Positions 23,713 through 64,000 of a stretch of 64,000 nt of DNA are shown here, one piece after another (position 1 is the first letter of the stretch; every line of letters begins with the position of its first letter). Under the pieces are notes generated by a model that searched no databases, was not told where the DNA came from, and worked only from the letters and a program-made list of their open reading frames with translations. The stretch covers positions 25,345-89,344 of the IMG/VR virus record IMGVR_UViG_3300008107_000157. One strand, written 5' to 3'. Source of the stretch: a virus. The position numbers and the translations under genes are program-made.

Positions 23713-23733
23713 TGTATATCTTTGAGTTACAAT

Positions 23734-23744
23734 GATAAATATTT
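23734..23744 (-). promoter_or_regulatory. Candidate late promoter motif
   Basis: On the coding strand the sequence reads AAATATTTATC and ends 21 bases before the ATG of the large fibre gene. It matches the ATATTTATA motif found upstream of seven other transcription units in this window. It lies in the 96-base divergent space shared with the plus-strand small gene. Function is inferred from recurrence. Confidence 0.45.
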
Positions 23745-23808
23745 CAAAAAAATATTATCTTCATATTTATATAAAGAAAACTAATAAAAACTAAAGAAAT
23801 ATAAAGTT

Positions 23809-23988
23809 ATGAAATATTCTATGTTGCAAATAAAAAAAGAAACCCACGAACTTCTCAAAAAATATTGCGAAGAACATGGGTTTAAGATGGGGAGTTTAGT
23901 TGAAAATTTAATTAAAAAACACGTCGGTGTTACTAAACCTCAAGCGAGTGTGTTAAGAGCTGATAAGGTTAAAAATCAATCTTACTAA
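23809..23988 (+). CDS. Small ribbon-helix-helix-like protein
   Basis: This 59-residue gene is the only convincing coding sequence on the plus strand. It starts MKYSMLQIKKETHELL and continues with a second helix ending SLVENLIKKHV. A short beta strand with alternating residues, a first helix, a Gly turn and a second helix form the Arc/MetJ-type fold of phage DNA-binding regulators. After it comes a basic tail. Its 3' end overlaps the stop end of the fused SbcD-SbcC gene by 20 bases in antisense. It may repress one of the promoters around 23.7 kb; the target is not visible. Confidence 0.7.
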   Translation: MKYSMLQIKKETHELLKKYCEEHGFKMGSLVENLIKKHVGVTKPQASVLRADKVKNQSY

Positions 23989-26900
23989 ATCCATCTATCT
24001 TTTTTATCTCTATCAATCCATCTACGATATCTCTCATTTGTTCTAAGTGAGAAATCATCCAAATAAAATCAAATTGAGTTTTTAAATATTGCATCATCAT
24101 AAATAATGATGATAAGTTGTTTGCATCCAATGTACCAAATCCTTCATCAATTACTAAGAAGTTTGGACGAGGTAGGTTACATATGTTAATTAGAGCTACT
24201 CTAATAGCCAATCCACTTACGAATTTCTCCATACCACTACACATCTCTAAAGGCCATTCTTGGTCTTCATAAACAATCTTTGCGTTAATGTTTTTACCAT
24301 CGATGTCCATTACAATACTAAAATCAACAACCTGTCCTAAGATATTATTGATTTCATTTTCAATAACTGGCATTGCTTTAGAAATTAATTCGTATGGAAC
24401 TCCATCACGCTTAACTGCATCTAAATAATAGGTGTATAGGCGGTTCTTTTCTTCCAAATCCTTAACTTCATTCATCTTAGATTTAATACCTTCTATAAAC
24501 GATTCTAATGAAGAAATAGAGCCATTCAATCCAGCTATATCTTTGTTAATAGATTTGATTTCTAATTCAATCTCACCCTTAGTTCTATTTAACCCATTAA
24601 TAACGGATTCTATTTGTTTGTTACGTTTAATAGTATCTTCGTTATCGTGATACTTTTGGATATCGGTATTTACCTGCTCTAATTGAGTATCATATAATTG
24701 TTTTTGAGTTTCGAATCCGTTTAATTCAGCAATTGTTTTTTCTTTAATTACAATTGCTTTTTGATATTTGGATTTTAACTCAACTAATTCATCCCATTGT
24801 TCTTCTACATCTGCAATATAAGATGCCTGTTGAATTAATGATTGGTGCTTGTTTCCTAATTCTTCTAACTTATCTTCTTGCTCTTCTACTTTAGATTTGG
24901 TTTCTAATGCATCTTTTACAAACACATTATTCATACAAAACTTACAATTTGGGTCATATTCGTGTTGTTCCAAATGTGAAAGTTTTTCTCTATTAGATTC
25001 CAAAGATTGTTCTAATAATTGAATCTGATGTTCGGTTTCATTTATCTCACTTTTATATTCATCCCATTCTTTTTTTGCATCTTCAATTGGTTTACCATTT
25101 ATAATTTTATGTTCTTCAATTGATTGGGATATTTCTGTAATCGATTTAGTATATTCATCCAATTTACCATTCTTACTTTTTTCTTCGGAAAGAACGTGTA
25201 AAATATCAAATCCAATTTGATTCTTTTTCTTTTCTAATTTTTCTAAATCCAAATTAGCATCTACTGGCACTAACTCTTTTGTTAATCCCAATATTCTATT
25301 AGATAAATCTTCTACATCATTTGTTTTTGTTTCTAATTCTTTTTCTTTACCTCTTAGTTCTGATTTCTTAGTTTGCTTTTCTAAACCCTTTTCAGCCAAC
25401 TCTGTCGTAAAGTCGGTTTTCTTAAAATTTTTGATAAGTACCGATACTTCTTTAATATCTTCGGTTGCGGTTTCGTATAATTTATCAAACACATTTAATC
25501 CCATAAATTGTGCTAATAAATCTTTTCTTTCCGATTGTGATTTATCAATAAAGATTGAGTTATTACCTTGTAATGATAATGCGGTCAATACGAAATCTTC
25601 ATACTTACCAACGTATTGTTCAATTACGGCGTTTGTATCCCTACGTTCCGTACCATTTAAAGAAGTTGTAACTCCACCTTCTTCTTTCCAAAATTGTACA
25701 TCTACTTTAACGTTCTTACCTTTGTTAATAGTTCTAGCAGTTCTTTTGATAAAGAAATCCATTCCATTAACTTGGAAGTGTAGCTCACATTCGAAATCAG
25801 ATTTACGATTATTCATAATGTTTTGAGCTTTGAATGCTCTACTACTCTTATCGTATAAACAAAATGAAATAGCATCGAATAAAGAAGATTTACCTGCTGC
25901 GTTTGGTGCAAATAATCCCATCAATCCTCCTATCTTTTGGAAATCGATTTTATTCTTCTCACCATATGAGAACATATTACTGAATGTAAACTTAATAGGT
26001 TTCCAATGAATATTTCTATGTACTTCCTCTTGCGTTATTCTACTATTGATATCTCTATTGATTACTTCCAATCCATCTAAGTCGGTAGTAGTTGTAAACG
26101 GCATCATTCTTTGAACGTAATCTCTTATCAATGTGTTTTGATGATTGATATCAGTTACATCTTCAAAATCTAATTTACTTAATCGATTACCAGTCTTTTG
26201 CTTATTAAATGAATCGGTTCTGATGATTGTGAAATCTTCAACACCATATCTCATTTTAATTTCAGTAATTACTTTCTTTGTATCAGCCGTATCCGTATTA
26301 GATAAACGAACTCTTAAACGAGGTTTCTTTGGCATATCCATTACAATAGGAACTACTCCATTATCAACATCCAATGTATAATATCCATATTCATTTGGAA
26401 TATCGATTGCTTCGTATTTCATTGAATCCATATCCCAAGCTAAGAATCCGTGTCCATTTAAACTTTCACCAAAGTTTTGTTGTACCAATGAACCGGCATA
26501 AACTACTTTACATCCGCTTGGTGAAATCATAGTTTGTCTTTTATGGATATCACCTAATAAGGCTAAATCATATCCATCAAACATATCGGTAGTGAAATGG
26601 CGAGATGATACCACATACCCAACATCGGTTTGGGAATTATCAACAGGTCCATGAAACAATGCAATCTTCTTATTACCAAATAGGGTATTAGCTTTTGGCC
26701 AATTTGCTTTGTCATCAAAGATACTGAATACACCAAAATCAACATCACCAATAGAATATACTTGCGTATCTCTTAGGTATGTAAAATTGGGTAGATTCAA
26801 TGCATCTACGATAGGAGTAAGTACATCTAATCTATCGGAGTTATTCATATTACAATCGTGATTACCTGTAATAAGGATTGTTTCACAATGTTTAGAACAT

Positions 26901-27115
26901 TCCGTAAATAGCCAACTTATCTCTCTAACCAATTCAGGAGATAATTCCAATTTAGCATGCGCAATATCACCTGCTAAATAAATGAGTGAATTTTCCGTAC
27001 CTCTTTTACGGATTTCTTCAAACATCTTTTCAAACACTTGTCTATACTCTTTGTGTCTTTGTACGTTGCGAATGTGTACATCCGCAATATGATAGATTGT
27101 TTTTAATCTTTTCAT
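23969..27115 (-). CDS. Fused SbcD-SbcC (T4 gp47-gp46) recombination nuclease
   Basis: One polypeptide of 1048 residues joins an Mre11/SbcD phosphoesterase to a Rad50/SbcC ATPase. Metal motifs are DVHIR (12-16), GDIAH (49-53), GNHD (84-87) and GDIH near 188. From about residue 370 the ATPase half begins, with Walker A APNAAGKSS near 403, a long coiled coil interrupted by a CKFC zinc hook near 721, the CSGMEKF signature and Walker B VIDEGFGTLD near 988. In T4 these are two genes acting in recombination-dependent replication and DNA degradation. The fusion would fix 1:1 stoichiometry. It lies directly downstream of the methyltransferase gene. Confidence 0.93.
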   Translation of the reverse strand: MKRLKTIYHIADVHIRNVQRHKEYRQVFEKMFEEIRKRGTENSLIYLAGDIAHAKLELSPELVREISWLFTECSKHCETILITGNHDCNMNNSDRLDVLTPIVDALNLPNFTYLRDTQVYSIGDVDFGVFSIFDDKANWPKANTLFGNKKIALFHGPVDNSQTDVGYVVSSRHFTTDMFDGYDLALLGDIHKRQTMISPSGCKVVYAGSLVQQNFGESLNGHGFLAWDMDSMKYEAIDIPNEYGYYTLDVDNGVVPIVMDMPKKPRLRVRLSNTDTADTKKVITEIKMRYGVEDFTIIRTDSFNKQKTGNRLSKLDFEDVTDINHQNTLIRDYVQRMMPFTTTTDLDGLEVINRDINSRITQEEVHRNIHWKPIKFTFSNMFSYGEKNKIDFQKIGGLMGLFAPNAAGKSSLFDAISFCLYDKSSRAFKAQNIMNNRKSDFECELHFQVNGMDFFIKRTARTINKGKNVKVDVQFWKEEGGVTTSLNGTERRDTNAVIEQYVGKYEDFVLTALSLQGNNSIFIDKSQSERKDLLAQFMGLNVFDKLYETATEDIKEVSVLIKNFKKTDFTTELAEKGLEKQTKKSELRGKEKELETKTNDVEDLSNRILGLTKELVPVDANLDLEKLEKKKNQIGFDILHVLSEEKSKNGKLDEYTKSITEISQSIEEHKIINGKPIEDAKKEWDEYKSEINETEHQIQLLEQSLESNREKLSHLEQHEYDPNCKFCMNNVFVKDALETKSKVEEQEDKLEELGNKHQSLIQQASYIADVEEQWDELVELKSKYQKAIVIKEKTIAELNGFETQKQLYDTQLEQVNTDIQKYHDNEDTIKRNKQIESVINGLNRTKGEIELEIKSINKDIAGLNGSISSLESFIEGIKSKMNEVKDLEEKNRLYTYYLDAVKRDGVPYELISKAMPVIENEINNILGQVVDFSIVMDIDGKNINAKIVYEDQEWPLEMCSGMEKFVSGLAIRVALINICNLPRPNFLVIDEGFGTLDANNLSSLFMMMQYLKTQFDFIWMISHLEQMRDIVDGLIEIKKIDGFSKIDF

Positions 27116-28971: not shown

Positions 28972-29184
28972 TTATTTCTTTACTGAATCCGAATATTTCG
29001 GAGAAGAAGTTACTTCACCACCTCTACCTGTTTTGAATTTTGCAGCAGTTAACACTTGGTCATCTACTTTTTTCAAATCGTCTGTAGTGTATGGAGTTTT
29101 TGCAGCAACACCTGCTTCGAATCCAATTTTATCAACACCTAAAGATGCTTGAGATGATTTGTATAAATCTAAAATCTTTGACAT
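28972..29184 (-). CDS. Small hypothetical protein, possibly virion-associated
   Basis: The 70-residue protein is rich in Lys, Ser, Thr and Gly and has no recognised motif, membrane segment or cysteine. Its sequence has a helical start (KILDLYKSS) and a polar second half. A copy of the ATATTTATA motif lies 16 bases before its ATG, so it is probably expressed late, together with endonuclease I downstream. Function unknown. Confidence 0.6.
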   Translation of the reverse strand: MSKILDLYKSSQASLGVDKIGFEAGVAAKTPYTTDDLKKVDDQVLTAAKFKTGRGGEVTSSPKYSDSVKK

Positions 29185-29200: not shown

Positions 29201-29211
29201 TATAAATATAA
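29201..29211 (-). promoter_or_regulatory. Candidate late promoter motif
   Basis: Coding strand reads TTATATTTATA, then TTAAACAATAG before the ATG at 29184. One of eight similar copies in front of structural units. Confidence 0.45.
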
Positions 29212-29212
29212 G

Positions 29213-30415
29213 TTAAGTATCAAAACGTACAATAAAGTTTACAGGTAATTCCGGGTCTGATTTAATTGCTTGTGGAAGTTTAGCCACAGCTACTAAATCA
29301 CAATTATCATCATATAAACCTATTGTTGTTATAAATGGTGCTAAGAATGAGCCTGTTGAATCTACCGAACCACTTGCTTCCCAATGTTCAAATCCAGCTT
29401 TAGCGCTTCCCGTAGTACCACTAAATCTATAATCTAAAACATCTCCGTTTTCTAATACGGATTTTTTACGAATATATTTAACGCCTGGGGTTGTAGTTGT
29501 TTTATATATTTTACCATCGGAGCCTGTTATATATTCTTGCACTTTTCCTACTTCTACTACGGCTGATGGGTTTTGTGAAATATTAAATTCATCTGGTTGA
29601 ACTATTAATAAGAATTCGTTTTCATAAATAGTTTCGGTTGATTTATAATCTAAAGTCCAACCACTATTTAATCTATTTGCCGCATCTCTTGTTAATACTA
29701 TTAAACCTTGTGTATAGAATACGTTACCTATTTTTATACCCTGCGCTGCTTCTGGTAAGAATGGTAAATCATCTGCAATTAATACACCGGATTGTACATC
29801 GTATGATATCAATTGTTGGAAGTATGTATCACCTTGATATATAATTTCTATTTCTTCATTTTGAATATCAACGAATACAGTTGTTGGATATGGAGATGAA
29901 GCACTATATTGAGTATTAATATAATCTACAAAATTTACTTCATTTGTTTGATTATCTATTAATGATACAACTACACTATCTCTCGGGTCTTGTATATTAC
30001 CATACCCATCATCAACATAAGTTGCGGATGAATCTATTAATGTAACAGAAAACTTTTTTATACCTTCACCAACTGCTATTTGTGGAATGCTGATTACTTT
30101 TGCGTAATCTTCAAAATATCTTTCTTTTGCTAATGTAGCAGTTTCATAATAATTTCTTTTAGAACCAAATCTTATAAATGGATTATCTTCATTTCCATTA
30201 TAAAATTGAGCTCTAAGTTGACCATAAAGCCCCAATTTACTATAAGATGAACCACTTAAACTTCCGGTTGTGATTATATTAGAAGATAATGATTCATAGT
30301 TGCCGGCTTCTGCTTCCAATACGGCTATTTCTGGAGAACCACTAATAAAGCTCCATTCTTTATAAGCCTTAAAAGGTCTTATACTAATATCTGATTTTGG
30401 TATTCTTTTTAACAT
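29213..30415 (-). CDS. Tail/baseplate structural protein
   Basis: The 400-residue protein is beta-rich with many Ser, Thr and Gly. Its last 45 or so residues (ITTIGLYDD, LVAVAKL, then hydrophobic strand) closely match the C-terminus of the next gene upstream (TTVGLYDD, LLAVAKV). This shared tail suggests a common docking domain for two tail or baseplate parts. Its first residues contain KSDISIRPFKAYKEW, resembling known phage tail-associated proteins. It has its own candidate promoter right after a terminator. Confidence 0.7.
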   Translation of the reverse strand: MLKRIPKSDISIRPFKAYKEWSFISGSPEIAVLEAEAGNYESLSSNIITTGSLSGSSYSKLGLYGQLRAQFYNGNEDNPFIRFGSKRNYYETATLAKERYFEDYAKVISIPQIAVGEGIKKFSVTLIDSSATYVDDGYGNIQDPRDSVVVSLIDNQTNEVNFVDYINTQYSASSPYPTTVFVDIQNEEIEIIYQGDTYFQQLISYDVQSGVLIADDLPFLPEAAQGIKIGNVFYTQGLIVLTRDAANRLNSGWTLDYKSTETIYENEFLLIVQPDEFNISQNPSAVVEVGKVQEYITGSDGKIYKTTTTPGVKYIRKKSVLENGDVLDYRFSGTTGSAKAGFEHWEASGSVDSTGSFLAPFITTIGLYDDNCDLVAVAKLPQAIKSDPELPVNFIVRFDT

Positions 30416-30421: not shown

Positions 30422-30431
30422 TATAAATATC
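30422..30431 (-). promoter_or_regulatory. Candidate late promoter motif
   Basis: Coding-strand GATATTTATA only 6 bases before the start at 30415 and just downstream of a strong terminator, as expected for a unit boundary. Confidence 0.45.
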
Positions 30432-30440: not shown

Positions 30441-30466
30441 AAAAACCCAACTTTTTGGAGTTGGGT
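30441..30466 (-). terminator. Rho-independent terminator
   Basis: Coding-strand ACCCAACT, a short loop, AGTTGGGT, then a T-run form a stable eight-pair stem followed by U residues. It ends the operon of the 404-residue gene (30508-31722) and separates it from the promoter motif of 30415. Confidence 0.8.
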
Positions 30467-31730: not shown

Positions 31731-32354
31731 TTATTGAACGTAAGTTACTGTCACTGGAATTGTTTGTGAACCACCCGTTTCGTTACCATAAACAGTTATA
31801 GTTGTTTTGATAGTCGAAGTTAAAGATGGGTTTGGAATAAATTTGAAAGTTAATCCCTTTGCAACTGCTGCAGTTGCTGATACATCATCACCAATAAAAA
31901 TAGGTACAGTACCAACATCTGCTGTTACACCTTCACCTACAATATCACCAGCGTTTTTATTTGATAATACAATTGTATATCCTAATCTTCTATTTCCGGC
32001 AGGAGATGTAGTTGGAGATAATGAAACCTCACCACTTCTTTGATTAACTGCTACGTTAGGAACACCAAATTCTACAACTGGGATTCTTGTAGTATTTTTT
32101 GGAAGTGTTACAATTTTGTATTTCATCACCTGAGTCTCATCAGGAGATGCTTCTAATACAGGCATATTTTTGATTGCTGCGTCATAATAAGCCGAACCCA
32201 ATGGGTGTGCTGGCTCATATAAAGAGTAATCAATTTCATCGTCTGCTAAAGCAAATTGGGTAATATTTAAACCCAAACCTGCTGCTAATTTTTCTCTACC
32301 TTTTTTAGTAAGAATTGCATCAACTGTCAATTCATTATTACTTAAATATCCCAT
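31731..32354 (-). CDS. Structural protein, tail-associated
   Basis: The 207-residue protein starts MGYLSNNELTVDAILTKKGREKLAAG, then ALADDEIDYSLYEPAHP and MPVLEA. This arrangement is seen in virion proteins of T4-like phages that infect Bacteroidota and cyanobacteria, usually listed as hypothetical structural proteins. Its C-terminal half is an Ig-like beta-sandwich. Two overlapping motif copies lie upstream. It heads a two-gene unit with the 404-residue protein. Confidence 0.7.
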   Translation of the reverse strand: MGYLSNNELTVDAILTKKGREKLAAGLGLNITQFALADDEIDYSLYEPAHPLGSAYYDAAIKNMPVLEASPDETQVMKYKIVTLPKNTTRIPVVEFGVPNVAVNQRSGEVSLSPTTSPAGNRRLGYTIVLSNKNAGDIVGEGVTADVGTVPIFIGDDVSATAAVAKGLTFKFIPNPSLTSTIKTTITVYGNETGGSQTIPVTVTYVQ

Positions 32355-32374: not shown

Positions 32375-32391
32375 TTATAAATATAAATATT
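32375..32391 (-). promoter_or_regulatory. Candidate late promoter motif (double copy)
   Basis: Coding strand has two overlapping TATTTATA elements ending 21 bases before the ATG at 32354. Similar to the other seven copies; the sequence is nearly palindromic. Confidence 0.45.
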
Positions 32392-32402: not shown

Positions 32403-35400
32403 TTATTCCACTTCTAATATTGGTTCACTTGCATCTCTACCTGCTTTGTTTACTCTTAATGTGTTTGGATTTGTTAAGAATGTTTCAACAGGCGGTGTAC
32501 CATCTAATGTAGTTGCTGCAGTATTTTTTGAACCCTTATAGAATGAATTTTGTAATCCTCTTGTCAAATCCGTTGTGTTTCTATAATGTGTTGGCAAGTA
32601 TCCATTTAATGGAATTACTTTTACATTTGCATTTGATGATGTTAATGCGGATGAGCCAGAAAATGGTTGTATATTTAATTTTGTTTCAACATAAGTATCA
32701 GTTCCAACTTTATTATAAAGTCCACTAACACCCACACTTCCTGTTAAATATACATATTCTCTCGTTTTAGTTTCTTTTATTAATTGTACCCTAACTCTTT
32801 CCTTTTTAAGATTACCATCTTTATCATAGTAAGTTCTTATAGCAGAACCACTTTGTGCATAAATACCAAATCCTAATGTTTCATAATCATTTTGTCCAAC
32901 AACAACGTTGCCATTTATTAATTCAACTTCGGTTAATATGGTTGGTACATCAAATATAGAATCTATACTTGCCGTATATTGATATGAATTACCTTCTAAT
33001 AGTGAAAATTCTTTTGCATCTATTGTAGATGTATATTGATATGATTCTCCATTTAAAATTGCTGCTGATGCTGAATCCAAAGTTGCATCATATTGATTGT
33101 TTTCACCAACTAATGAATATTCACTTTCAGTATCTAAAACAACATCGTATTGTATGTGTTCCGCTGATAATAATTCATTTCCATATTTTATTACCGATTC
33201 ATAATCATTATGTTCACCAACTGGTTTTGAATGTTGGTGTTTGCTTCTTTCTAAAATGTGTGGTTCAATTAAAAGACCTGTACTAGCTTTAACTCTAGCC
33301 GGCAACATCTTCTTAATATCTTCAAACATAGATTTCTCATATAGTTTGATTAAGTTGATGTATGCGTAGATATCTCTACCATCAAATCTCTGGAAGTAAT
33401 AGTGTCTTAATTTATCTAAACTCTTATAAGTATCTTTATATCTATCAGATGGGTCACCGATATAGTTATCTAAGTTAATTCCACCAAACGATTTAGCAAT
33501 ATCAATATTCAACTCTTTTGTAGGAGAGAAGAATAAACCAATTCTGTTAGAATCAGTTGGAGATTGGTCAAATGCTTTTTTAGTAGAACGAGTCTTTGAT
33601 GATAAATCGGAAACTAATGTTTGCTCTTCAAATCTAACTTTGTTTGTAGAGTATCTTGTAGAACCCATATCAGGAACTTCTAACACAACACTTCTATCTA
33701 TTGCTTCAAAGTTAAAAGGATAAGAACCACTATTCGGAAAATTATGTGCACTTGCCGAATATGAAGCTGATGGGTTTAGTGAATATAATTCAGTCGCACT
33801 TCCACTTTCATAACTTACTCTATCGGCACTACCACTAAAATAAATATTTGTATCTACGTTTGGTATGGATTGATATTGAGATAAGTTCTTTGGATATTCA
33901 AAGTCTAAACGGAAATGTAAATCATCAGTTGAAGATGAGATATGGTTACCATTAATCATTTCGGGAAATGAAACGTGCTCATAGAATCTTTCTTTATCTA
34001 ATGGTGTAGACCATAATCTGAATTCATCAGCCGTTCCTACGAAATCATTACCAAATGTTATATTAGACCCATTATTCCAATTTGAATTTGTTCCTAAAAC
34101 ACTTATAGTGTTTGATTCTTCAAATATTGTTCTATCTTTATCAGCCTGTCTTACATTTAATTCAAAATTATGATAGCTTGAACTAATTTCTCTACTAACT
34201 TCTATACCAAAAAATCTACCATTAAATAATGGTAATAAAGATGATGATATAGCGTTTGAGCCAGAGTAATTAAATATAACTCTACCATAGTTTTGATTTG
34301 CAGAACCACTTATATGTACACCCCAACCACTACCCGATATAACATTATAGTTATCTGCTTCGGATGGTTTTACAAAAAACTCTATTGTATCAGGTTTTCT
34401 ATTTTCGTTTGTATCAAACCAATCTATTGATAGGTAAGAGCCACTAATCATTTTTAAACCATAAGTAAGATTATCAAATACTAATTTAGATTTTGTAACT
34501 TCACTAACTTCTGGTCCACCAAATTCTAAAATTGAAAGGTTTGATGATGGGATACCATAACAACTTAATAGTGCATAAATACCTCTACGAGTACCTTTAT
34601 GTTTTAAAAGATATGGTAAATTGTTTACAATTCTTCTCCAAACTTCGTATGTTCTTTGTTTAGCAGGATTTTCATTTTTAATATTACCATCTACATCTAT
34701 ACCAAATGTATATTCCCAAAGTTTAGAATCTGCTGCAAGATTTTTTGCATCCCAATTGAATGATTTAAGAATATCAAATAATAGTTTATCTGATATTCCA
34801 TCTTTTGCTTTGTATCCTAATCCTCTACTTTTTTCAATTGCTTTAGTATGGTAGTAGATGTTATCAAAGTGTTGACCAACCATTGTAAAGAATAAAATAA
34901 ATTGGTCATTGTTTTCATTATTTACAATGTATTCCGGTATGTTATTTAAAACGTAGTTTGGATTCTCAATATCAAAATCTTCTGCTAATTCTATAATATT
35001 ATCATACCAACCTGTATTAAAAATGTTTGTTATAATATGCGATGTGCTTGATATCCTATCACCATTATTATCATATGGCCATGTTATAGAGCTTCCCGTA
35101 TTATTTGTATATAATGAAGATGATGTATATAAAAACTTTTCAAAACCATCGAATCCAGCTATTAACGTATCTTTTTTAGATTGCTGTCTATTAACTTCTT
35201 GTATTGATGCAATAGAGCCGGTATATGAACCAGATGGTCCATTAGTATAGTTTGTAGAAGCTGATAGTATTAAATTATCGTAAGCTTCAATCAATTGAAC
35301 TTTATAAACAAAGTTATCTACTCTTTCTTTAGCAGAACTAAAATGTACAAAGTTACTCCATTCATAATTATCCGAACCACTTATATAATATTCTACATTT

Positions 35401-37748
35401 AATTCATCAGTATTTATTAATGATGATGTTAAGTATGTAGAAACTAATTGAGCTGATGTTGTTGAACCACTTAATATTAAATTATCCAAAGATTCGTATG
35501 CGGTAGATTGACCACTTACAAAATCAACATCAATATTGAAATTAGGTCCTTTTATTGGTGGACATTTAACTTCATCTTGCTCCGTAAGAATTACAGTTTC
35601 AATTAATGGATTTGACATTAATTTAGTAATCCACAAAGTAGAGTTTGCGGTTATATTTGGATTTAAAGGTGTGTATAATTTAAGAATTAAAGAATCAACT
35701 TTATTTGTTACCTTTATGTTTCCTATTTCATCCGTTTCTTTATCCGATAAAGTCCAATCATCATTTTCCCAAGACGAAATTAATATTTGCTCATCATTAC
35801 CAAAATTTGTTAAGTGAGATAAATATTTACTTTCTTTTTCAGGTTCAACTATACTTAATTTTTCTGCAAATGCATCAAATATAACAGTTGAAAATATATT
35901 CTCATCTAATTGAAATGCCGGCAATCCTAAAGTAGTTATTACTTCGTATTCATTACCAATAAGCTCTTCGGCGCCACCTCTATTAAATGGTTTAAATACC
36001 AAAGTTACATTATCACTACCTGCCCAATTTGTAAATCTTTCTCTTAAAGATTTTATGTTTATTAAAACTTCTCCGTTTGGATTTAAGTTTTTAAATAAAC
36101 CTATTCTACTTTTATCTTTTAATAATAAATCTACATCCACCGTTGTTGTTGAGAACGATGTGTATTCTATTTTATATTCAATGTTAAAATCTGAAAAAGA
36201 TGGTACATCTATATTTTGCGGAAAGTTTATTTCGGTAATAGATGGAAAATCATTTACAGCAGTAAAAGTAATTAAAGTAGTAGCAGAATCTCCTGTTCCG
36301 TATCTATTACTTTTAGCTAATAAAACTATTTTTTTAGTTCCATAAACTTCAGCAAAATCATTTTTAAATGATAAAGTTATATATTGATTAGATGGTGGTA
36401 TTGATATTACTTGAGAACTCCCATCGATATAAAGTAATACCTCATCTGCATTTATCGTTCTAAATGGAATTGAAATATTTTTATCATCATCCGATTCTTT
36501 TACCTGAACAGATATTTGTTTATATACATCATCAATTTCAACAGATGGTCTTTCTACTTCTATTTCTTTTTCGAATAGAGTTACGACAGATATGCCTGTT
36601 TTTAAAAGCTCACTAGATACACTAAACGCAGATGGTTGCTTATTCCATTTGTTATAATCGGGTTCGGTTGTAGCAAACAATCCATTTGGTGTGGCTGTTT
36701 GATATATGTTTGTTAAAAAATAATTAGATGGCAGATTGTTGTATCTTATTTTAAAATCTACTCTACCTCCATTTAATTCTTTTAAATCAATTTTCTGTAT
36801 ATCATTACCATCTGATAATGATATCGAACTTTGTTTTAATATATTTTCCTGTGCTGAAAATATTATATAATCCAATATTACATTATTTCCTAATTCGTTT
36901 TTTAAATTAGAAGAAAATACAATTTCATATTCCAGCTTATCAGCTACATTTGGGTCTCCACCTAATCCACCGCCAAATCCACCTCCAGTATCGCCGCTTA
37001 AACCACCACCGCTTTTAGTTTTTGCCTTAGTTGTAAAGTTTAATGTTATAGAACCAAAATCAGAATCTAAATTTTTAGTATTATCTAGTAAATAACTACC
37101 ATCCGGTTGTAATCTATATTCGTTTATTGTTAAAACTTCAGCATATTTGTAATCAATAGCTGTTGTTTTAGGGTTAAAATTATATCTTAATTTTGGGGTA
37201 TATCTAGTTAAAAAGTTATTTCTATCATCATTATAGTAATCATCATTAAATCCAAAAATACCCCTTCTGTTTGAATTAAATCCATATGAATTTCTTCCAA
37301 ATCTTATATATTCTGGGTTTAGATAATCTATATCCAAATCCAATGGTGTATTTATTTCTTTTGGTGGTTGATATTTTTTTGTAACGCTAACTTCATAGTA
37401 TTGTTCTGCGATACTACCATCTTTAACGATTTCATATTTTTTTGTGCCGGAAAATGTAGAAGCTGGAAAGAATCCTTTTCTAAAACTCTGACCAAATGAT
37501 AATGAAACTCCGTTTTCAAAAAATTCAACTACATCATCCCCAGCCGTTAATGATATTTTAATCATTTTACTGGTAGTAGTATCCACTATATCAATCGGAA
37601 CATATGTTGGGTTTGGTGGTACAGGTGGTACATATCCTCCTCCTCCGCCTCCTCCACCATTATCAATGAAAGCAGAGTATTGACCGTTACCATCATATGC
37701 GTTTAGGGTAGGTTCTCCTCCAAAAATATTTTCTAATGCTTTTACCAC
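32403..37748 (-). CDS. Very large baseplate/tail protein with LamG-like domain and C-terminal repeats
   Basis: A GTG-initiated protein of 1781 residues. After a Gly/Pro-rich N-terminus (about 30-50) come many beta strands. At about 1040-1080 is a WRRIVNNLPYLLKHKGTRRGIYALLSCYGIP segment (key residues NNLPYLL, KGT, CYGIP) known from phage tail/baseplate proteins. A LamG-like carbohydrate-binding domain follows at about 1110-1290. Near residues 1520-1600 are four repeats with YQY-like cores. It lies in the baseplate block downstream of the gp6 and gp25 homologues and probably connects the baseplate with fibres. Confidence 0.8.
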   Translation of the reverse strand: MVKALENIFGGEPTLNAYDGNGQYSAFIDNGGGGGGGGYVPPVPPNPTYVPIDIVDTTTSKMIKISLTAGDDVVEFFENGVSLSFGQSFRKGFFPASTFSGTKKYEIVKDGSIAEQYYEVSVTKKYQPPKEINTPLDLDIDYLNPEYIRFGRNSYGFNSNRRGIFGFNDDYYNDDRNNFLTRYTPKLRYNFNPKTTAIDYKYAEVLTINEYRLQPDGSYLLDNTKNLDSDFGSITLNFTTKAKTKSGGGLSGDTGGGFGGGLGGDPNVADKLEYEIVFSSNLKNELGNNVILDYIIFSAQENILKQSSISLSDGNDIQKIDLKELNGGRVDFKIRYNNLPSNYFLTNIYQTATPNGLFATTEPDYNKWNKQPSAFSVSSELLKTGISVVTLFEKEIEVERPSVEIDDVYKQISVQVKESDDDKNISIPFRTINADEVLLYIDGSSQVISIPPSNQYITLSFKNDFAEVYGTKKIVLLAKSNRYGTGDSATTLITFTAVNDFPSITEINFPQNIDVPSFSDFNIEYKIEYTSFSTTTVDVDLLLKDKSRIGLFKNLNPNGEVLINIKSLRERFTNWAGSDNVTLVFKPFNRGGAEELIGNEYEVITTLGLPAFQLDENIFSTVIFDAFAEKLSIVEPEKESKYLSHLTNFGNDEQILISSWENDDWTLSDKETDEIGNIKVTNKVDSLILKLYTPLNPNITANSTLWITKLMSNPLIETVILTEQDEVKCPPIKGPNFNIDVDFVSGQSTAYESLDNLILSGSTTSAQLVSTYLTSSLINTDELNVEYYISGSDNYEWSNFVHFSSAKERVDNFVYKVQLIEAYDNLILSASTNYTNGPSGSYTGSIASIQEVNRQQSKKDTLIAGFDGFEKFLYTSSSLYTNNTGSSITWPYDNNGDRISSTSHIITNIFNTGWYDNIIELAEDFDIENPNYVLNNIPEYIVNNENNDQFILFFTMVGQHFDNIYYHTKAIEKSRGLGYKAKDGISDKLLFDILKSFNWDAKNLAADSKLWEYTFGIDVDGNIKNENPAKQRTYEVWRRIVNNLPYLLKHKGTRRGIYALLSCYGIPSSNLSILEFGGPEVSEVTKSKLVFDNLTYGLKMISGSYLSIDWFDTNENRKPDTIEFFVKPSEADNYNVISGSGWGVHISGSANQNYGRVIFNYSGSNAISSSLLPLFNGRFFGIEVSREISSSYHNFELNVRQADKDRTIFEESNTISVLGTNSNWNNGSNITFGNDFVGTADEFRLWSTPLDKERFYEHVSFPEMINGNHISSSTDDLHFRLDFEYPKNLSQYQSIPNVDTNIYFSGSADRVSYESGSATELYSLNPSASYSASAHNFPNSGSYPFNFEAIDRSVVLEVPDMGSTRYSTNKVRFEEQTLVSDLSSKTRSTKKAFDQSPTDSNRIGLFFSPTKELNIDIAKSFGGINLDNYIGDPSDRYKDTYKSLDKLRHYYFQRFDGRDIYAYINLIKLYEKSMFEDIKKMLPARVKASTGLLIEPHILERSKHQHSKPVGEHNDYESVIKYGNELLSAEHIQYDVVLDTESEYSLVGENNQYDATLDSASAAILNGESYQYTSTIDAKEFSLLEGNSYQYTASIDSIFDVPTILTEVELINGNVVVGQNDYETLGFGIYAQSGSAIRTYYDKDGNLKKERVRVQLIKETKTREYVYLTGSVGVSGLYNKVGTDTYVETKLNIQPFSGSSALTSSNANVKVIPLNGYLPTHYRNTTDLTRGLQNSFYKGSKNTAATTLDGTPPVETFLTNPNTLRVNKAGRDASEPILEVE
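32952..33175 (-). repeat. Tandem coding repeat (about 19 residues, four units)
   Basis: Four units of about 57 bases with the pattern hydrophobic-Gly/Glu-x-x-QY-x-x-x-hydrophobic-Asp. The units are diverged in DNA and stay in frame; they are part of the large baseplate protein. Confidence 0.7.
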
Positions 37749-37762: not shown

Positions 37763-37772
37763 TATAAATATC
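37763..37772 (-). promoter_or_regulatory. Candidate late promoter motif
   Basis: Coding-strand GATATTTATA, 14 bases before the GTG at 37748, the same spacing as in front of the gene starting at 63976. Confidence 0.5.
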
Positions 37773-44449: not shown

Positions 44450-44460
44450 AATAAATATTG
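44450..44460 (-). promoter_or_regulatory. Candidate late promoter motif
   Basis: Coding-strand CAATATTTATT, about 15 bases before the ATG at 44434. Slightly weaker than the other copies. Confidence 0.4.
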
Positions 44461-48416: not shown

Positions 48417-49106
48417 TTAAATTTTTATATCACCTTCCCTATCAAATTCATTATAGAGTGCCATTTGTTTTTCTTTCATTTTGTTGACAACCTTAGTAAT
48501 GTAATGAGTAGGATACCCTGTCATTTCTCTAATAAGTAGGTATAATGATTTTTTGTTGAAACTTTCTATATAGTTTGCTCTTCTAAATAGTTCTAATACG
48601 GCATCTGCAATCTGAATATCTCTTTTCTTTTGAAAGAAGTTTTCTAAGTGTACATCCCAATATTGTAACATTCTATCGTTGAATGTTCTATGTTCTTCGT
48701 TACGAACTTCTTCCGCCCAATTGTTTTCGGTATCCCAATTATCAGGCAAAGATGACATTACATCGGTATCTTTATATCTTTTATAGTTTGAATTATTATT
48801 TAAGATAAGATAGTTTCTTGCAACAATAGTAAAATAAGAGAATGCCTTACCCTTACCTTCTTGATACATATGAATCTTTTCAACCATAAATGCAACAACT
48901 TCCGCCATCACATCTTGCGGGTCATCATCGAAGTAACTAAATTTCCATTTATTGTAAACTATTTCTGCAAGTTTATCAAATGAGTGTTGTATCCTATCCC
49001 TATATAATCTATTTTTTATATTTTGGTCATCGGTTTTATTATACTCAATGATAGCATCTTCTGTATCTTTTGTGAAATATATTCTGGGTACTCTTTTTCT
49101 AGGCAT
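48417..49106 (-). CDS. Late sigma factor, T4 gp55-like
   Basis: The 229-residue protein resembles T4 gp55, the sigma factor for late transcription: helical segments with FTKDTEDAIIEYN, FDKLAEIVYNKWKFSYF, VMAEVVAFMVEKIHMYQEGKGKAFSYFTIVARNYL. The sigma-2-like region is therefore kept. It would direct host RNA polymerase to phage late promoters, probably the ATATTTATA motif found here. In T4, late transcription also depends on the sliding clamp. The gene lies downstream of the deformylase and 4 bases before carbamoyltransferase. Confidence 0.85.
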   Translation of the reverse strand: MPRKRVPRIYFTKDTEDAIIEYNKTDDQNIKNRLYRDRIQHSFDKLAEIVYNKWKFSYFDDDPQDVMAEVVAFMVEKIHMYQEGKGKAFSYFTIVARNYLILNNNSNYKRYKDTDVMSSLPDNWDTENNWAEEVRNEEHRTFNDRMLQYWDVHLENFFQKKRDIQIADAVLELFRRANYIESFNKKSLYLLIREMTGYPTHYITKVVNKMKEKQMALYNEFDREGDIKI

Positions 49107-50316: not shown

Positions 50317-50653
50317 CTATTTCTCCTTTTCTAATTTTAGTTCCGCTTATTTCAGCAATTTCAGTTGGTGGTTCGTGGTATATTACATCGTAACCAACGC
50401 CTCTACCATAGTTTACCGATTCGATATCAGGAATAATTGAAATCATAATTTTATCCCAATTATTTTGGAAAAATGATTCGTTTTGTAACATAGTTAAAAC
50501 TTCTTGTGCTGATTTAGGATTGTTCTCATCTTTTTGAACATCTCTAATTGCAACCCATACATTTTTTCCGTTATCCATTTGTTGGCGGATTAACCATTCG
50601 TGTCCTTTATGCCAATTCTGCCATCTCCCTATGAATAGTGCGTACTTTTTCAT
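50288..50653 (-). CDS. Nucleotidyltransferase (cytidylyltransferase-like)
   Basis: The 121-residue protein has LFIGRWQNWHKGH (residues 6-18) with the HxGH nucleotide-binding motif and ISGTKIRKG near residue 105, the second conserved motif of the nucleotidylyltransferase superfamily. These enzymes transfer AMP or CMP, as in NMN adenylyltransferase or sugar-phosphate cytidylyltransferases. The small size is unusual and suggests a minimal core. It overlaps UV endonuclease upstream by 47 bases and DUF2061 downstream. Confidence 0.75.
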   Translation of the reverse strand: MKKYALFIGRWQNWHKGHEWLIRQQMDNGKNVWVAIRDVQKDENNPKSAQEVLTMLQNESFFQNNWDKIMISIIPDIESVNYGRGVGYDVIYHEPPTEIAEISGTKIRKGEIDATGKETHS

Positions 50654-51574: not shown

Positions 51575-51605
51575 AAATATAAACAAAAAATATGAGAAAA
51601 CCAAA
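51575..51605 (-). promoter_or_regulatory. Bacteroidota-type promoter for UV endonuclease
   Basis: Coding-strand TTTG, 19 bases, TATATTTG, then 24 bases to the ATG at 51551. Matches the primary-sigma consensus of Bacteroidota. Confidence 0.72.
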
Positions 51606-53681: not shown

Positions 53682-54005
53682 TTAATATAGGTCTTTTTTT
53701 GTTAAAATTTTATAAAGTATTTCAACTTCCTCTTCTGTGGTTAATTCCGGCATATCTTCATCGAATAATCGCATAGTATAAAGAGTGATTCCTTCTTCGG
53801 ATTCAAATTCAGTAGATTCGGATGACCATAACGATGGTATAGATTCCAAATTATTCTCTAATTCTTGCTGTGATACATCGATGAGGGGTATAATGTAATA
53901 ATGGAATGTATCCTCTAAGGATTCATCTTTGACTTCTATTTTGATGCACGGATTCCACTTAGTGAAACTAACATCTGTTATTGGAGTTTCGGGTACTACT
54001 ATCAT
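53682..54005 (-). CDS. Acidic hypothetical protein
   Basis: The 107-residue protein is strongly acidic with many Glu, Asp and Ser. It shows a beta-rich first half and a C-terminal helix (TTEEEVEILYKILTKKD). It is not recognised. Small acidic phage proteins can act as inhibitors or DNA mimics, but nothing here proves it. It has its own host-like promoter only a few bases before the ATG, so it is probably expressed early and strongly. Confidence 0.6.
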   Translation of the reverse strand: MIVVPETPITDVSFTKWNPCIKIEVKDESLEDTFHYYIIPLIDVSQQELENNLESIPSLWSSESTEFESEEGITLYTMRLFDEDMPELTTEEEVEILYKILTKKDLY

Positions 54006-54010: not shown

Positions 54011-54042
54011 CAAATATATGTAAAAAATTTTAAAAAACCAAA
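54011..54042 (-). promoter_or_regulatory. Bacteroidota-type promoter for acidic small protein
   Basis: Coding-strand TTTG, 20 bases, TATATTTG, then only about 5 bases to the ATG at 54005. The transcript would be nearly leaderless. Confidence 0.72.
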
Positions 54043-57673: not shown

Positions 57674-59173
57674 TTAAATCTTTTGCAATCTACTACCACC
57701 ACCACCACCACATCCTGGACAATAATTACTATTACACCAGTGACCACAATAGTTCCAAGGACACCAACAACTGTTATGTTGTACACCAAAATCACCATCA
57801 CCAAAATCAACTAAGAAAAGGTCGGATGATTCAAAATCCAAACTATAAATAGTTTTATTAGCGTGTTCCATTTCCAATCCAGCGATAGCGATGGTTGTTA
57901 GTTCATTAGTAGTAGAATCCGTAATAACTAACTTATCACCCACATACATCTTATTAACATTTTCAAATCTAGTAGCTAAAGAACCAGATTGCTCTATATA
58001 ATATTTTGCAGAAGGAGCATCTGTCCAACTTCTACCATCTTCCAATGTTATACGAATGTATATTGTATCAACTGAAGCGGATATAATATGTTGTAGTACC
58101 GACCCGGTTTGTATTAATGTTGAATTATCTTGCGATATTGTACTATTCCATCCAAATGTTTCGATTTTATCCTGTTCAAATTTAGCAGCATGATTATCGT
58201 TGAAATCTACATAATCAATAGAACGAACATAATCGCCTAATTGAATAGTATCTATATCCATTAACGTTCCATCAAATTTCAAAATAACACTATCATCATC
58301 GGTATGGTAATCATTTTTTGCAAAGTTACCTAATTCTTTTGTAATGTATTTATATCTGCTTTTTTGATTTAGTTTATTTGTACCTGATACAAACTCATCA
58401 GGTGTAAATGTTAATGGAATTATGGTTGATTGTCTATATCCGCCTAAATTTATTACATCTAAATTTCCACCATAAATTATATCAATGCTTCTTATAATTG
58501 AATATCTACCATTTACAACATTATCTTCTGAAAAAATAAACTCCTGAACTAAATGATTTGTTTCTACACTATCTTTAATTGTGGATAATTCGGTAGTATC
58601 GGAAGCCCTATATAATGCAGGATAATCCATTATTTCATATTGTGGATATCTGGCTTTAACTATTACGTTTGGCGTTTCCGTTGTTTCATAATCAACATCA
58701 TTTAAGCTTTCTAAACTTAAACTATCCGATGTAAAAAATGTTTTTGGTATATAATTAGAACCACTCATTAATGAAAAGAACTCAAATTTATCGGCACAAT
58801 ACGTTTCATCTACTAAAGCAGTTGTATCAAATGATTGTCTTAAAATAAACTTATTAACTGCATCTTCTATATAAGGTACAGTTACAGAGTTATAAGGTAC
58901 TGCGTAATCTTGGAAAGTTATTCCATTTGCTAAACAATTTTCTTCTAATAATTTTTTAAATTTAAATTGTTCATTTAGTGGAGTATATGCCGATGTTTCT
59001 GTCCATATAAAATGGAATTCAGTTATTCCATTCTCATTTAAAACATTAAATAAAGCATCGTAATCTAAATAATCAGCACCTGTATTGTAAATTGTGGTAT
59101 TGGTATTTATTTCTAAAAACTTTACGGAATTACCATACTCCAATAAATCGCTACCAATTATAGTTCCTTTCAT
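57674..59173 (-). CDS. ATP-grasp-like protein with C-terminal Hint domain and Cys-rich tail
   Basis: The 499-residue protein has an N-terminal region (1-270) with NVIVKARYP, LVQEFIF and GRYSIIRSIDIIY, which resembles ATP-grasp enzymes. From about 290 a Hint-like beta domain follows: DSVILKFDGTLMDI, QLGDYV, later VGDKLVI and FLVDFGDG. It ends at GVQHN followed by Ser468, the His-Asn-Ser junction typical of intein and Hint cleavage. The last 32 residues hold six cysteines including CPGC and a Gly run. The layout suggests self-processing that releases a Cys-rich peptide. Similar proteins occur in large phages, always as unknown function. A late-type motif lies upstream. Confidence 0.65.
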   Translation of the reverse strand: MKGTIIGSDLLEYGNSVKFLEINTNTTIYNTGADYLDYDALFNVLNENGITEFHFIWTETSAYTPLNEQFKFKKLLEENCLANGITFQDYAVPYNSVTVPYIEDAVNKFILRQSFDTTALVDETYCADKFEFFSLMSGSNYIPKTFFTSDSLSLESLNDVDYETTETPNVIVKARYPQYEIMDYPALYRASDTTELSTIKDSVETNHLVQEFIFSEDNVVNGRYSIIRSIDIIYGGNLDVINLGGYRQSTIIPLTFTPDEFVSGTNKLNQKSRYKYITKELGNFAKNDYHTDDDSVILKFDGTLMDIDTIQLGDYVRSIDYVDFNDNHAAKFEQDKIETFGWNSTISQDNSTLIQTGSVLQHIISASVDTIYIRITLEDGRSWTDAPSAKYYIEQSGSLATRFENVNKMYVGDKLVITDSTTNELTTIAIAGLEMEHANKTIYSLDFESSDLFLVDFGDGDFGVQHNSCWCPWNYCGHWCNSNYCPGCGGGGGSRLQKI

Positions 59174-59204: not shown

Positions 59205-59214
59205 TATAAATATC
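59205..59214 (-). promoter_or_regulatory. Candidate late promoter motif
   Basis: Coding-strand GATATTTATA, 31 bases before the ATG at 59173. It separates the Hint-protein unit from the upstream genes. Confidence 0.45.
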
Positions 59215-61484: not shown

Positions 61485-61490
61485 ATTAAA

Positions 61491-61793
61491 TTATAATTTA
61501 TTTGAAATCGAATGTAGCTTAGCACATTCTTCATACATTTCTAATGCGGTTAATCTACCCATCAACCACTTACCCATAGATTTAAAATCCTCTCTTTTAA
61601 GAGTTATATATGCGGGCATAGATTTGTATTTGACCAGTATTATCTCCTTACACTTCCTATTAGACTTCCAATTATCTAACTTATCAACCAATTCCGAAAG
61701 ATTTTGATTAGACAGATTAGTTTTTGGAAGATACGTTTTCCATTCTAAAGATATCCAACCTTTTTCTAACTTATCTAAGACAGTAATATTCAT
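61491..61793 (-). CDS. Small hypothetical protein
   Basis: The 100-residue protein has a beta-helix-like mix with KGWISLEWKTYLPK and a long helical C-terminus (GKWLMGRLTALEMYEECAKLH). It is rich in Trp and Lys. It is not recognised. A promoter-like sequence with the same TTTG-N20 spacing, but a weaker -7 (TATATTG), lies directly upstream. Confidence 0.55.
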   Translation of the reverse strand: MNITVLDKLEKGWISLEWKTYLPKTNLSNQNLSELVDKLDNWKSNRKCKEIILVKYKSMPAYITLKREDFKSMGKWLMGRLTALEMYEECAKLHSISNKL

Positions 61794-61799
61794 AACCTA

Positions 61800-61830
61800 C
61801 AATATACGATAATAATTTTAAATTTCCAAA
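61800..61830 (-). promoter_or_regulatory. Weak Bacteroidota-type promoter
   Basis: Coding-strand TTTG, 20 bases, TATATTG. Spacing equals the strong promoters, but the -7 element lacks one T. It lies directly before the ATG at 61793. Confidence 0.5.
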
Positions 61831-61832
61831 TA

Positions 61833-62474: not shown

Positions 62475-62483
62475 AACTTTTAA

Positions 62484-62506
62484 GGGGGTGGGGGTTGGGG
62501 GCCTGG
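62484..62506 (+). other. G-rich tract, potential G-quadruplex
   Basis: Three runs of five G separated by one or two T, followed by CCTGG, in a genome otherwise very poor in G runs. It lies just upstream of the SGNH gene and at the border of a region with different base composition. On the plus strand it could fold into a G-quadruplex, with the fourth tract shorter (GG). Confidence 0.6.
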
Positions 62507-62547
62507 TCGTTTTTAAAAAAGAAAATTTTTGTTATCTCTATTGATAG

Positions 62548-62700: not shown

Positions 62701-62709
62701 ACTATTCTA

Positions 62710-63729
62710 TTATATATCAATTCCTTTCGCTTTTAATCTACTTAGGAGTGATGCGTTTGTATTCGTTAGGTTTTGTTGTGCTTGGAGTAATTGTCTTCTT
62801 AATTCCGATTGAGCGGCCGTATCGCCCGCTTGAGCAGTTTTAATGGTATTCTCCGTTTGGTCAATCTTCTTTTGTAAATCCGTTTGAGCCTGCTCTACCT
62901 TTTGTGCCAAATCATCTGCTTTGGCTTGGGCGGCATCGGATTGAGATGTGGATACGAGGGGTTGCTTATCTACGGCGGTAGAAGATTTACTCACCACTTG
63001 AACGGATATATCATCTCCCGAATCTGCTGCGGCAAGAATAGTATATTTAGTTGTTGAAGTAGGTGTAATCTTCCCAAAGTAGAATATATCCTTAATAGCT
63101 TGGAAATCGGAATTCAATTGTGCTAACCTATCGTTAATTATCTTAATGTTATTAGCCAGTTTATCTTCGGGTACTCTCGCATCCTTATCTAATGGTTCTA
63201 CGGGTATAGCATCTATTGAGTAATCTGCGGAAAGATTTAAATCAAATACCTTATATGTATCTAATGGTTTTTCAGCATTAGGGGATAATGTCCATATGAT
63301 TTGTTTAATAAGAACTGAAGTATCGTTACCATTAATCTCCCACTCTACATCCTTAACACCTGAAAAAGGAATCTTACCCTTTTGTTTCTCTATCTCCTCT
63401 AATATCTTTAGGGTATCTATTGGTATAATAGGGATTGTCTTTCCCATTCTAGCACCTAATACCTTAGAGTGTTCCTTATATGTGTAGTGGGGGTTTATAG
63501 AAACCGAGTCCGCAAGGGTTTCTAATAACTCCGAAGATGCCAAATAGCGATTGTAATTCCTTAGATAAATAATAACGCCTTTGATATCAAAAGGTAATAC
63601 GCCCTCTATATCCAAATCATCCTCTAAGACTTGAATCGTAACGGGGGTTAATCCCTCCTTAGCGGATATCTTATATCCATTATCCTCTTTGAAGTACCTT
63701 CTTTGGTTTTGTTGTAGTTCTACTATCAC
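62710..63729 (-). CDS. Structural protein with C-terminal coiled coil
   Basis: The 339-residue protein has a beta-rich N-terminal two-thirds and an Ala/Gln-rich coiled coil from about 265 to 330 (QSDAAQAKADDLAQKV, then QQNLTNTNASLLSRL). Such tails trimerise in fibre and neck proteins. It overlaps the upstream 98-residue gene by 50 bases, so its true start may be a little downstream of 63729. Its codon use is less AT-rich than genes to the left of 62.5 kb. Confidence 0.65.
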   Translation of the reverse strand: MIVELQQNQRRYFKEDNGYKISAKEGLTPVTIQVLEDDLDIEGVLPFDIKGVIIYLRNYNRYLASSELLETLADSVSINPHYTYKEHSKVLGARMGKTIPIIPIDTLKILEEIEKQKGKIPFSGVKDVEWEINGNDTSVLIKQIIWTLSPNAEKPLDTYKVFDLNLSADYSIDAIPVEPLDKDARVPEDKLANNIKIINDRLAQLNSDFQAIKDIFYFGKITPTSTTKYTILAAADSGDDISVQVVSKSSTAVDKQPLVSTSQSDAAQAKADDLAQKVEQAQTDLQKKIDQTENTIKTAQAGDTAAQSELRRQLLQAQQNLTNTNASLLSRLKAKGIDI

Positions 63730-63976
63730 CTTTAATTGCTTTCTTATATATAGTTAATTCTTTAATTCCTCTTCTTGCTATCTTCTCTAAACGAAGGACC
63801 TCTCTACGAATCTGCTGATAAGAACCATCCTCAATAGTATGGTATATCAATTCGTTACATCTCATATCATCGGTTATCTTATGAGTTGAAGCATCCCACA
63901 TTTCTAATCCTCTTGCCATTCCAACCGCAGTTCCAAACTCCTCCGATATTCTTACATATGTATCTTGTCTAACCAT
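63680..63976 (-). CDS. Hypothetical protein
   Basis: The 98-residue protein has a helical, charged sequence with a basic C-terminus (RRGIKELTIYKKAIKGDSRTTTKPKK). It is not recognised. A clear ATATTTATA motif ends 14 bases before the ATG, matching the late motif and spacing seen at 37763-37772. It begins the short late unit that includes the coiled-coil protein and the small membrane protein. Confidence 0.6.
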   Translation of the reverse strand: MVRQDTYVRISEEFGTAVGMARGLEMWDASTHKITDDMRCNELIYHTIEDGSYQQIRREVLRLEKIARRGIKELTIYKKAIKGDSRTTTKPKKVLQRG

Positions 63977-63990
63977 ATGGAATTCTTTAT

Positions 63991-64000
63991 TATAAATATC
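63991..64000 (-). promoter_or_regulatory. Candidate late promoter motif
   Basis: Coding-strand GATATTTATA at the very right edge, 14 bases before the ATG at 63976. Confidence 0.45.

What the first reader, a model, noticed from the sequence alone, without database searches (positions are those of the whole stretch)
23731..64000. Repeated ATATTTATA motif upstream of structural genes: likely late promoter of the gp55-like sigma
Eight copies, at 23734, 29201, 30422, 32375, 37763, 44450, 59205 and 63991, lie 6-31 bases before start codons, mostly of virion genes; two have identical 14-base spacing. One copy directly follows a strong terminator. A gp55-like sigma is encoded at 48417-49106. T4 late promoters read TATAAATA on the coding strand; here that sequence lies on the opposite strand, so this would be a diverged consensus or an orientation difference.
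Basis: partly seen in the sequence, partly recalled or inferred. Interest (0 to 1): 0.7.

Follow-up and report, generated by a model that had tools for sequence, protein, structure and literature searches.

The report
Late promoters of Bacteroidota-type T4-like phages
A short repeated DNA word in front of tail and baseplate genes of an uncultured phage is very probably the start signal for its late genes, a changed version of the classic phage T4 late signal, read by a T4-like phage switch protein that carries an extra domain.

Summary
The motif is real. Counted over the whole window it is at chance (9 exact, 8.8 expected), but 7 of the 9 exact copies lie on the coding strand in gaps before start codons (7 vs 0.17 in shuffled gaps, 0 of 1000). 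It is the top upstream 8-mer in the window's record and in cultured Flavobacterium phage immuto, and persists at diverged orthologous genes. In immuto it marks virion genes (15 of 22), whereas host-type TTG-N-TATATT promoters mark others (25 of 26). I read it as a late -10 element. TATTTATA, in T4's own orientation, is TATAAATA with the two central A's changed to T; no strand flip is needed. The 48417-49106 product is a remote gp55-type sigma (hhalign E 1e-6; sigma fold). Residues matching gp55's A(-12) and A(-8) pockets are kept; N13, which touches the changed A(-9), is replaced. Differences from T4: an added C-terminal helical domain (possibly region 4-like), and no T4-type gp45 clamp or gp33 detected. 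A new variant of the T4 late system; no experiment was done.

The parts
23734..23742 (-). variant late motif ATATTTATC, 21 nt before 20929-23712
   Evidence: one mismatch; ATATTTAT plus another last base in the clade rows shown for its orthologues
29201..29209 (-). late motif, 16 nt before 28972-29184
   Evidence: exact; TATTTATA kept in 5 of 6 orthologues
30422..30430 (-). late motif, 6 nt before 29213-30415
   Evidence: exact; kept in 6 of 6 orthologues, all after a hairpin plus T run
30441..30465 (-). terminator-like hairpin plus T run directly before the motif at 30422
   Evidence: read from the sequence
32376..32390 (-). two overlapping late motifs (32376-32384 and 32382-32390), 21 and 27 nt before 31731-32354
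   Evidence: exact; TATTTATA in 11 of 15 orthologues
37763..37771 (-). late motif, 14 nt before 32403-37748
   Evidence: exact; kept in 15 of 15 orthologues
44450..44458 (-). variant late motif ATATTTATT, 15 nt before 43919-44434
   Evidence: one mismatch; exact TATTTATA in 12 of 87 orthologues, most of the other rows shown read ATATTTATT
59205..59213 (-). late motif, 31 nt before 57674-59173
   Evidence: exact; TATTTATA in 12 of 14 orthologues
63991..63999 (-). late motif, 14 nt before 63680-63976
   Evidence: exact; TATTTATA in 2 of 5 orthologues
48417..49106 (-). gp55-type phage sigma, 229 aa; residues about 9-118 region 2, 134-229 extra helical domain
   Evidence: hhalign E 1.4e-6 to gp55 alignment; sigma fold, gp55 Z 9.9
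48417..48704 (-). C-terminal domain of the sigma, absent from T4 gp55; possibly region 4-like
   Evidence: model pLDDT 92; best VIA rows sigma-A region 4, Z 5.7 and 5.6, inconclusive
51575..51604 (-). host-type (sigma-A-like) promoter before 50607-51551
   Evidence: TTG-N-TATATT pattern in a gap
54012..54041 (-). host-type promoter before 53682-54005
   Evidence: TTG-N-TATATT pattern in a gap
61800..61829 (-). host-type promoter before 61491-61793
   Evidence: TTG-N-CGTATATT pattern in a gap

Best explanation
ATATTTATA (core TATTTATA) is the -10 element of the late promoters of a large group of T4-like myoviruses that, by relatives and promoter type, probably infect Bacteroidota. Host RNA polymerase first uses the host sigma-A on TTG-N-TATATTTG promoters. 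It is then redirected by the phage sigma at 48417-49106, a remote gp55-type factor, to TATTTATA promoters, which need no fixed -35 element and start RNA about 4-5 nt after the element, giving very short leaders. The element is T4's TATAAATA in the same orientation with the two centre bases changed. Shown by sequence: position, strand, conservation, two promoter classes, predicted sigma fold. Inferred: initiation at these sites, late timing, and recognition by this sigma.
For: Gap enrichment 7 vs 0.168, 0 of 1000 shuffles. 145 of 195 copies upstream in sense in seven records. Top upstream 8-mer in the window's record, the clade and immuto; the same code finds TATAAATA in T4; also in more distant groups. 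Kept at orthologous genes while 13 of 15 control genes with orthologues have none in 803 regions. In immuto late motif 15 virion block / 7 elsewhere, host-type 1 / 25, p 2e-6. No fixed TTG at late sites, fixed TTG at -23 in host-type ones. Distance to the start codon varies, mostly 10-26 nt in immuto and 27-43 in Mel-JY01, so the start codon does not set it. Sigma: hhalign Prob 90, E 1.4e-6; gp55 Z 9.9; Y97 match 39 of 39, T99 match T/S 38 of 39, N13 match replaced in 38 of 39.
Against: No transcript data. LR756508, with a sigma 46% identical, shows no TATTTATA excess in the 150 kb of 484 kb read. hhalign with the larger but shallower A2 gives only Prob 22, E 0.001; Foldseek alone is weak (gp55 E 2.5). 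T4's own late region also has TATTTATA upstream 6 times vs 0.00 expected. Seven of 22 immuto late-motif genes lie outside my virion blocks. Terminators precede few late sites: 16 of 191 by my rule, against 23 of 1598 for other genes. Sigma and motif are linked by co-occurrence only.
Confidence: 0.8

Rival explanations
1. The motif is a variant of the host sigma-A -7 box (TAnnTTTG), used by host polymerase with its own sigma; the phage sigma does something else.
For: Both share ATATTT; about 5 of 83 non-redundant clade late sites also have TTGG at -21, so some sites may serve both sigmas. PMC9723704 gives TAnnTTTG at -12 to -5 (passages).
Against: Late sites lack TTG at a fixed offset, while host-type sites have it at -23 in 11 of 19 and 8 of 8; the two classes mark different genes in immuto and rarely the same gene.
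Confidence: 0.1
2. The motif is an mRNA or translation element (ribosome docking, processing site) rather than a promoter.
For: It lies close to start codons in AT-rich leaders.
Against: The distance to the start varies widely (3-60 nt) and is longer in Mel-JY01; at 30422 and in all six orthologues it directly follows a terminator; genes with host-type promoters lack it.
Confidence: 0.05
3. It is T4's TATAAATA working in reverse orientation, or a two-way promoter.
For: The reverse complement contains TATAAATA; one spacer holds both orientations and keeps them in 7 of 7 orthologues.
Against: TATAAATAT in sense upstream is 9 of 195 places; genes lie almost all on one strand, so reverse promoters would read antisense; no reversal is needed because the same-register match is 6 of 8 bases.
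Confidence: 0.03
4. Chance clustering of an AT-rich word in AT-rich gaps.
For: Whole-window frequency equals the shuffle mean.
Against: 0 of 1000 shuffles of the gaps themselves reach 7; three other AT words of the same make-up show 24, 10 and 10 upstream places against 145; conserved in orthologues.
Confidence: 0.01

Closest known systems
T4 late promoter (TATAAATA) with gp55, gp33 and sliding clamp gp45
   Same: A single AT-only -10-type element, no -35 element, short distance to the start, before virion genes, in a T4-like virion genome with a phage-coded region 2 sigma.
   Different: Centre bases TT instead of AA; N13 of gp55 replaced; sigma has an added C-terminal domain and no visible gp55-type C-terminal clamp motif; no T4-type gp45 or gp33 detected.
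Late promoters of other T4-like phages (cyanophage S-PM2 NATAAATA, KVP40 TATAAATA, Aeh1 variant)
   Same: Same role and place by in silico consensus (PMC2984593, passages; PMC2988020, passages).
   Different: The published variants alter positions -13/-12; this one alters -10/-9.
Bacteroidota sigma-A promoter (TTG, then TAnnTTTG)
   Same: Found here too, as the other promoter class (PMC9723704, passages).
   Different: Needs TTG at a fixed distance; reads TATATTTG or TATATTTAG rather than TATTTATA; marks mostly non-virion genes in immuto.

Membership tests
T4-type late promoter | one conserved -10-type element in sense before late genes, strand-specific | tested here: met
T4-type late promoter | consensus TATAAATA | tested here: not met
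   clade TATTTATA 112 vs 2.64 expected; TATAAATA 10 vs 2.39; 6 of 8 bases shared
T4-type late promoter | no conserved -35 element | tested here: met
   no position beyond weak signals; no fixed TTG
T4-type late promoter | RNA starts about one helical turn after the element, at late times | not testable with these tools
   only an A preference 12 nt after the first T in immuto, 92% of 24
gp55 sigma family | region 2 homology to gp55 | tested here: met
   hhalign E 1.4e-6 over 109 columns with A1, weaker with A2; Z 9.9 to 7d7c_F; the gp55 PHROG hits 1 of 16 records, immuto, at the orthologue, E 0.008
gp55 sigma family | residues of the A-12 and A-8 pockets (Y97, T99) | tested here: met
   Y 39 of 39; T 20, S 18, Q 1
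gp55 sigma family | N13 at the A-9 pocket | tested here: not met
   T 22, G 15, N 1, D 1 vs N in 8 of 9 gp55s
gp55 sigma family | hydrophobic C-terminal clamp-binding motif | tested here: not met
   by eye: T4 ends SLDFLYEAND, window EFDREGDIKI; three of nine gp55 rows (L314, L315, L316) also lack a visible tail
T4 late transcription machinery | gp45 clamp and gp33 coactivator encoded | tested here: inconclusive
   profiles find T4 strongly; none of the other 13 records over the cut-off; divergent forms and incomplete records not excluded
two-domain sigma factor | region 4 fold in the C-terminal domain | tested here: inconclusive
   best VIA rows are sigma-A region 4 (Z 5.7, rmsd 3.5, 68 aligned; Z 5.6), but SRP and TFIIE score nearly as high

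The most novel reading that the evidence does not exclude
These phages run a self-contained late transcription system: one protein joins a gp55-type region 2, tuned to TATTTATA by loss of the N13 contact, to its own region 4-like domain that holds the polymerase flap as gp33 does in T4. Late transcription would then need neither gp33 nor a replication clamp, and could represent a step between ordinary two-domain sigmas and the split, clamp-coupled T4 machinery.
Probability: 0.35. Interest if true: 0.68.

Novelty: new variant of a known kind. Interest (0 to 1): 0.5.

Why it matters
It gives a readable early/late promoter code for an abundant group of aquatic phages whose genes are mostly unnamed: the motif flags likely late operons from sequence alone, and it names an unannotated late sigma (listed as a hypothetical protein in immuto). 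It also offers a natural test of how gp55 pockets set specificity (N13 and base -9), and of whether T4's clamp coupling is general.

Tried and rejected
Orientation flip: rejected; coding-strand TATAAATAT is rare upstream (9 of 195). A fixed -35 element in late sites: none found. Host-type promoter variant: rejected as the main reading. A terminator before most late sites: not so (16 of 191 late sites, 23 of 1598 other genes; Fisher p under 0.05 only in immuto and Mel-JY01). Sigma by single-sequence profile search: nothing in Pfam or PHROGs for the window protein; a profile search of PDB gave only a chance Rad50 row. Relatives in bacterial genomes: 10 stretches matched a pattern, none a relative. 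Gene 37773-39164 against phages: no match. Rfam: no hit in the window. Foldseek for the C-terminal domain: no match under E 2. Not-in-print claim: searches listed no report of a TATTTATA late phage promoter or of this sigma (open-access PMC only; listings read; passages read in PMC7892883, PMC2984593, PMC7824862, PMC9723704 and PMC2988020; most listed papers were not opened).
Full report
What was checked. The eight places named are on the coding strand where stated, 6-31 bases before ORF starts. Six are exact ATATTTATA; 23734 and 44450 differ in the last base; 32376 is a tandem with 32382. Both strands together hold 9 exact copies against 8.8 expected, so frequency alone proves nothing. Placement does: 7 of the 9 are coding-strand copies in gaps between genes; the gaps hold 1,704 bases, and in 1000 dinucleotide shuffles of them the mean was 0.168 and the maximum 2. 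Gaps follow my own ORF list, not a curated annotation.

Relatives. The window is the last 64 kb of an 89,344-base virus record. The sigma-like protein finds 264 relatives among 281 pattern matches in IMG/VR (best 80 kept) and the gp6-like baseplate protein 467 among 476 (best 80 kept). Six large relatives were read in full. With a simple ORF caller, 145 of 195 ATATTTATA in the seven records lie within 60 nt upstream of an ORF on its strand; 22 are inside genes in sense, 13 antisense, 15 elsewhere. These are not independent; 83 TATTTATA sites remain after removing those at least 60% alike upstream.

Unbiased scan. Ranking all 8-mers by excess upstream over inside genes puts ATATTTAT first in the window's record (12 vs 0.25) and the clade (168 vs 4.4), TATTTATA first in Flavobacterium phage immuto (24 vs 0.27), and ATATTTAT third in Microcystis phage Mel-JY01 (19 vs 1.9); the same code ranks TATAAATA second (11 vs 0.41, behind the overlapping TTATAAAT) in T4's late region. 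Among the loci of the sigma search, ATATTTAT is second behind the host-type word CGTATATT (52 vs 2.3); among 32 loci with a sigma 53-60% identical it is second (71 vs 2.6); among 11 loci at 46-52%, TATTTATA is first (11 vs 0.76). LR756508 shows no excess beyond a shorter CTATTTA, seen after the fact (7 vs 0.34).

Conservation. For eight window genes with a site I collected orthologues among the held loci: TATTTATA within 70 nt in 5/6, 6/6, 11/15, 15/15 and 12/14 for 28972, 29213, 31731, 32403 and 57674; 12/87, 2/5 and 1/7 for 43919, 63680 and 20929. For 43919 and 20929 the rows shown mostly carry ATATTTAT plus another last base. Of 16 control genes one had no orthologue in the held loci; 13 had none of the motif in 803 regions (related to each other); 46287 had it in 30 of 109 (its immuto orthologue has it too) and 46715 in 4 of 77. 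At 29213 a hairpin-plus-T terminator precedes the motif in all six rows.

Two promoter classes. A second class reads TTTGG-N-CGTATATTTG in the clade and TTG-N-TATATTTAGG in immuto, with TTG at one fixed offset (11 of 19; 8 of 8), matching the Flavobacterium sigma-A box TAnnTTTG (PMC9723704, passages). In immuto, genes with only the late motif are 15 in the virion blocks and 7 elsewhere; genes with only the host-type motif are 1 and 25; Fisher p 2e-6; 43 and 123 genes have neither. The 2 immuto genes with both were left out, and I drew the blocks from its deposited annotation. Late sites include terminase, portal, sheath, tube, hub and tape measure genes.

Why T4-like and in the same orientation. 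T4's element is TATAAATA. In the gp55-promoter structure the bases -12, -9 and -8 are flipped into pockets: A-12 on Y97, A-9 near N13 and H95, A-8 bonded to T99 (PMC7892883, passages). TATTTATA keeps A-12 and A-8 and changes -10 and -9. In a combined alignment the Y97 match is Y in 39 of 39 late sigmas, the T99 match is T 20, S 18, Q 1, and the N13 match is T 22, G 15, N 1, D 1 against N in 8 of 9 gp55s. H95 is F in all 39 but also in 5 of 9 gp55s, so it explains nothing. The polymerase-binding acid E77 is A or S in all 39. This is a correlation, not a test. In immuto 22 of 24 sites (92%) have A 12 nt after the first T, where a transcript could start. The T4 late region itself also has TATTTATA upstream (6 vs 0.00); I did not explain that.

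The sigma. No Pfam or PHROG hit for the window protein. Profile against profile: Prob 90, E 1.4e-6 over 109 columns with A1, but Prob 22, E 0.001 with the larger, shallower A2. The gp55 PHROG hits 1 of 16 records, immuto, at this gene, E 0.008; the control genomes of that call ring in 7 of 14, so the profile is not selective. The AlphaFold model (pLDDT 82.5, pTM 0.47) aligns with SigB (Z 10.0) and gp55 (Z 9.9, rmsd 5.6, 119 residues), nearly all rows being sigma factors; Foldseek alone is weak (gp55 E 2.5). Residues 134-229 form a further helical domain (pLDDT 92) whose best rows are sigma-A region 4 at Z 5.7, within the noise for small helical folds. T4-type gp45 and gp33 profiles find T4 but no other record over the cut-off (13 others searched, one weak row for LR756508 at E 0.011). 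PMC2988020 (passages) calls the clamp and gp55's C-terminal motif general in T4 relatives, so this group may depart from that rule; a divergent clamp is not excluded, and Mel-JY01 is annotated with a clamp loader subunit.

Mechanism. Most likely: early genes from host sigma-A promoters; then the phage sigma takes the host core polymerase to TATTTATA. Starts 4-5 nt after the element would leave leaders of none to some 25 nt in most cases; in Mel-JY01, where leaders seem to carry Shine-Dalgarno-like sequences, the element lies further upstream. Timing, starts and the sigma-DNA link are inferred. The host is inferred from immuto (Flavobacterium) and from the host-type promoters; Mel-JY01 is recorded from Microcystis.

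Noticed in passing
window 23713-23968 (+ strand motif at 23763-23771): The spacer before 20929-23712 holds a sense TATAAATA (a + strand ATATTTATA) facing the sense ATATTTATC; TATAAATA is kept in 7 of 7 orthologous spacers. It could be an opposed late promoter or a hairpin.
   Followed up: partly
window 49110-49349; immuto 77900-78193; Mel-JY01 158430-158792; LR756508 99994-100317: A small protein with a hydrophobic N-terminus and a conserved DDEVG-like motif is coded directly before the late sigma in four lineages.
   Followed up: partly
window 23969-27115: One 1048-aa ORF matches the SbcD-like family in its first third and the SbcC-like family in the rest, as if T4 gp47 and gp46 were fused.
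   Followed up: no
L237 (T4 late region, NC_000866 72001-120000): TATTTATA is also in excess upstream of T4 late genes (6 vs 0.00 expected), in some cases just downstream of TATAAATA and next to the Shine-Dalgarno site.
   Followed up: no
L228-L231 (Microcystis phage Mel-JY01): Small genes share a leader word AACCTAACA about 20 nt before the start codon, 7 of them.
   Followed up: no
clade late sites (G000-G006): About 5 of 83 non-redundant late sites have TTGG at -21, so they may be overlapping host-type and late promoters.
   Followed up: no
window 46715-48412: A carbamoyltransferase (PF02543, PF16861) lies between the late sigma and the baseplate genes.
   Followed up: no
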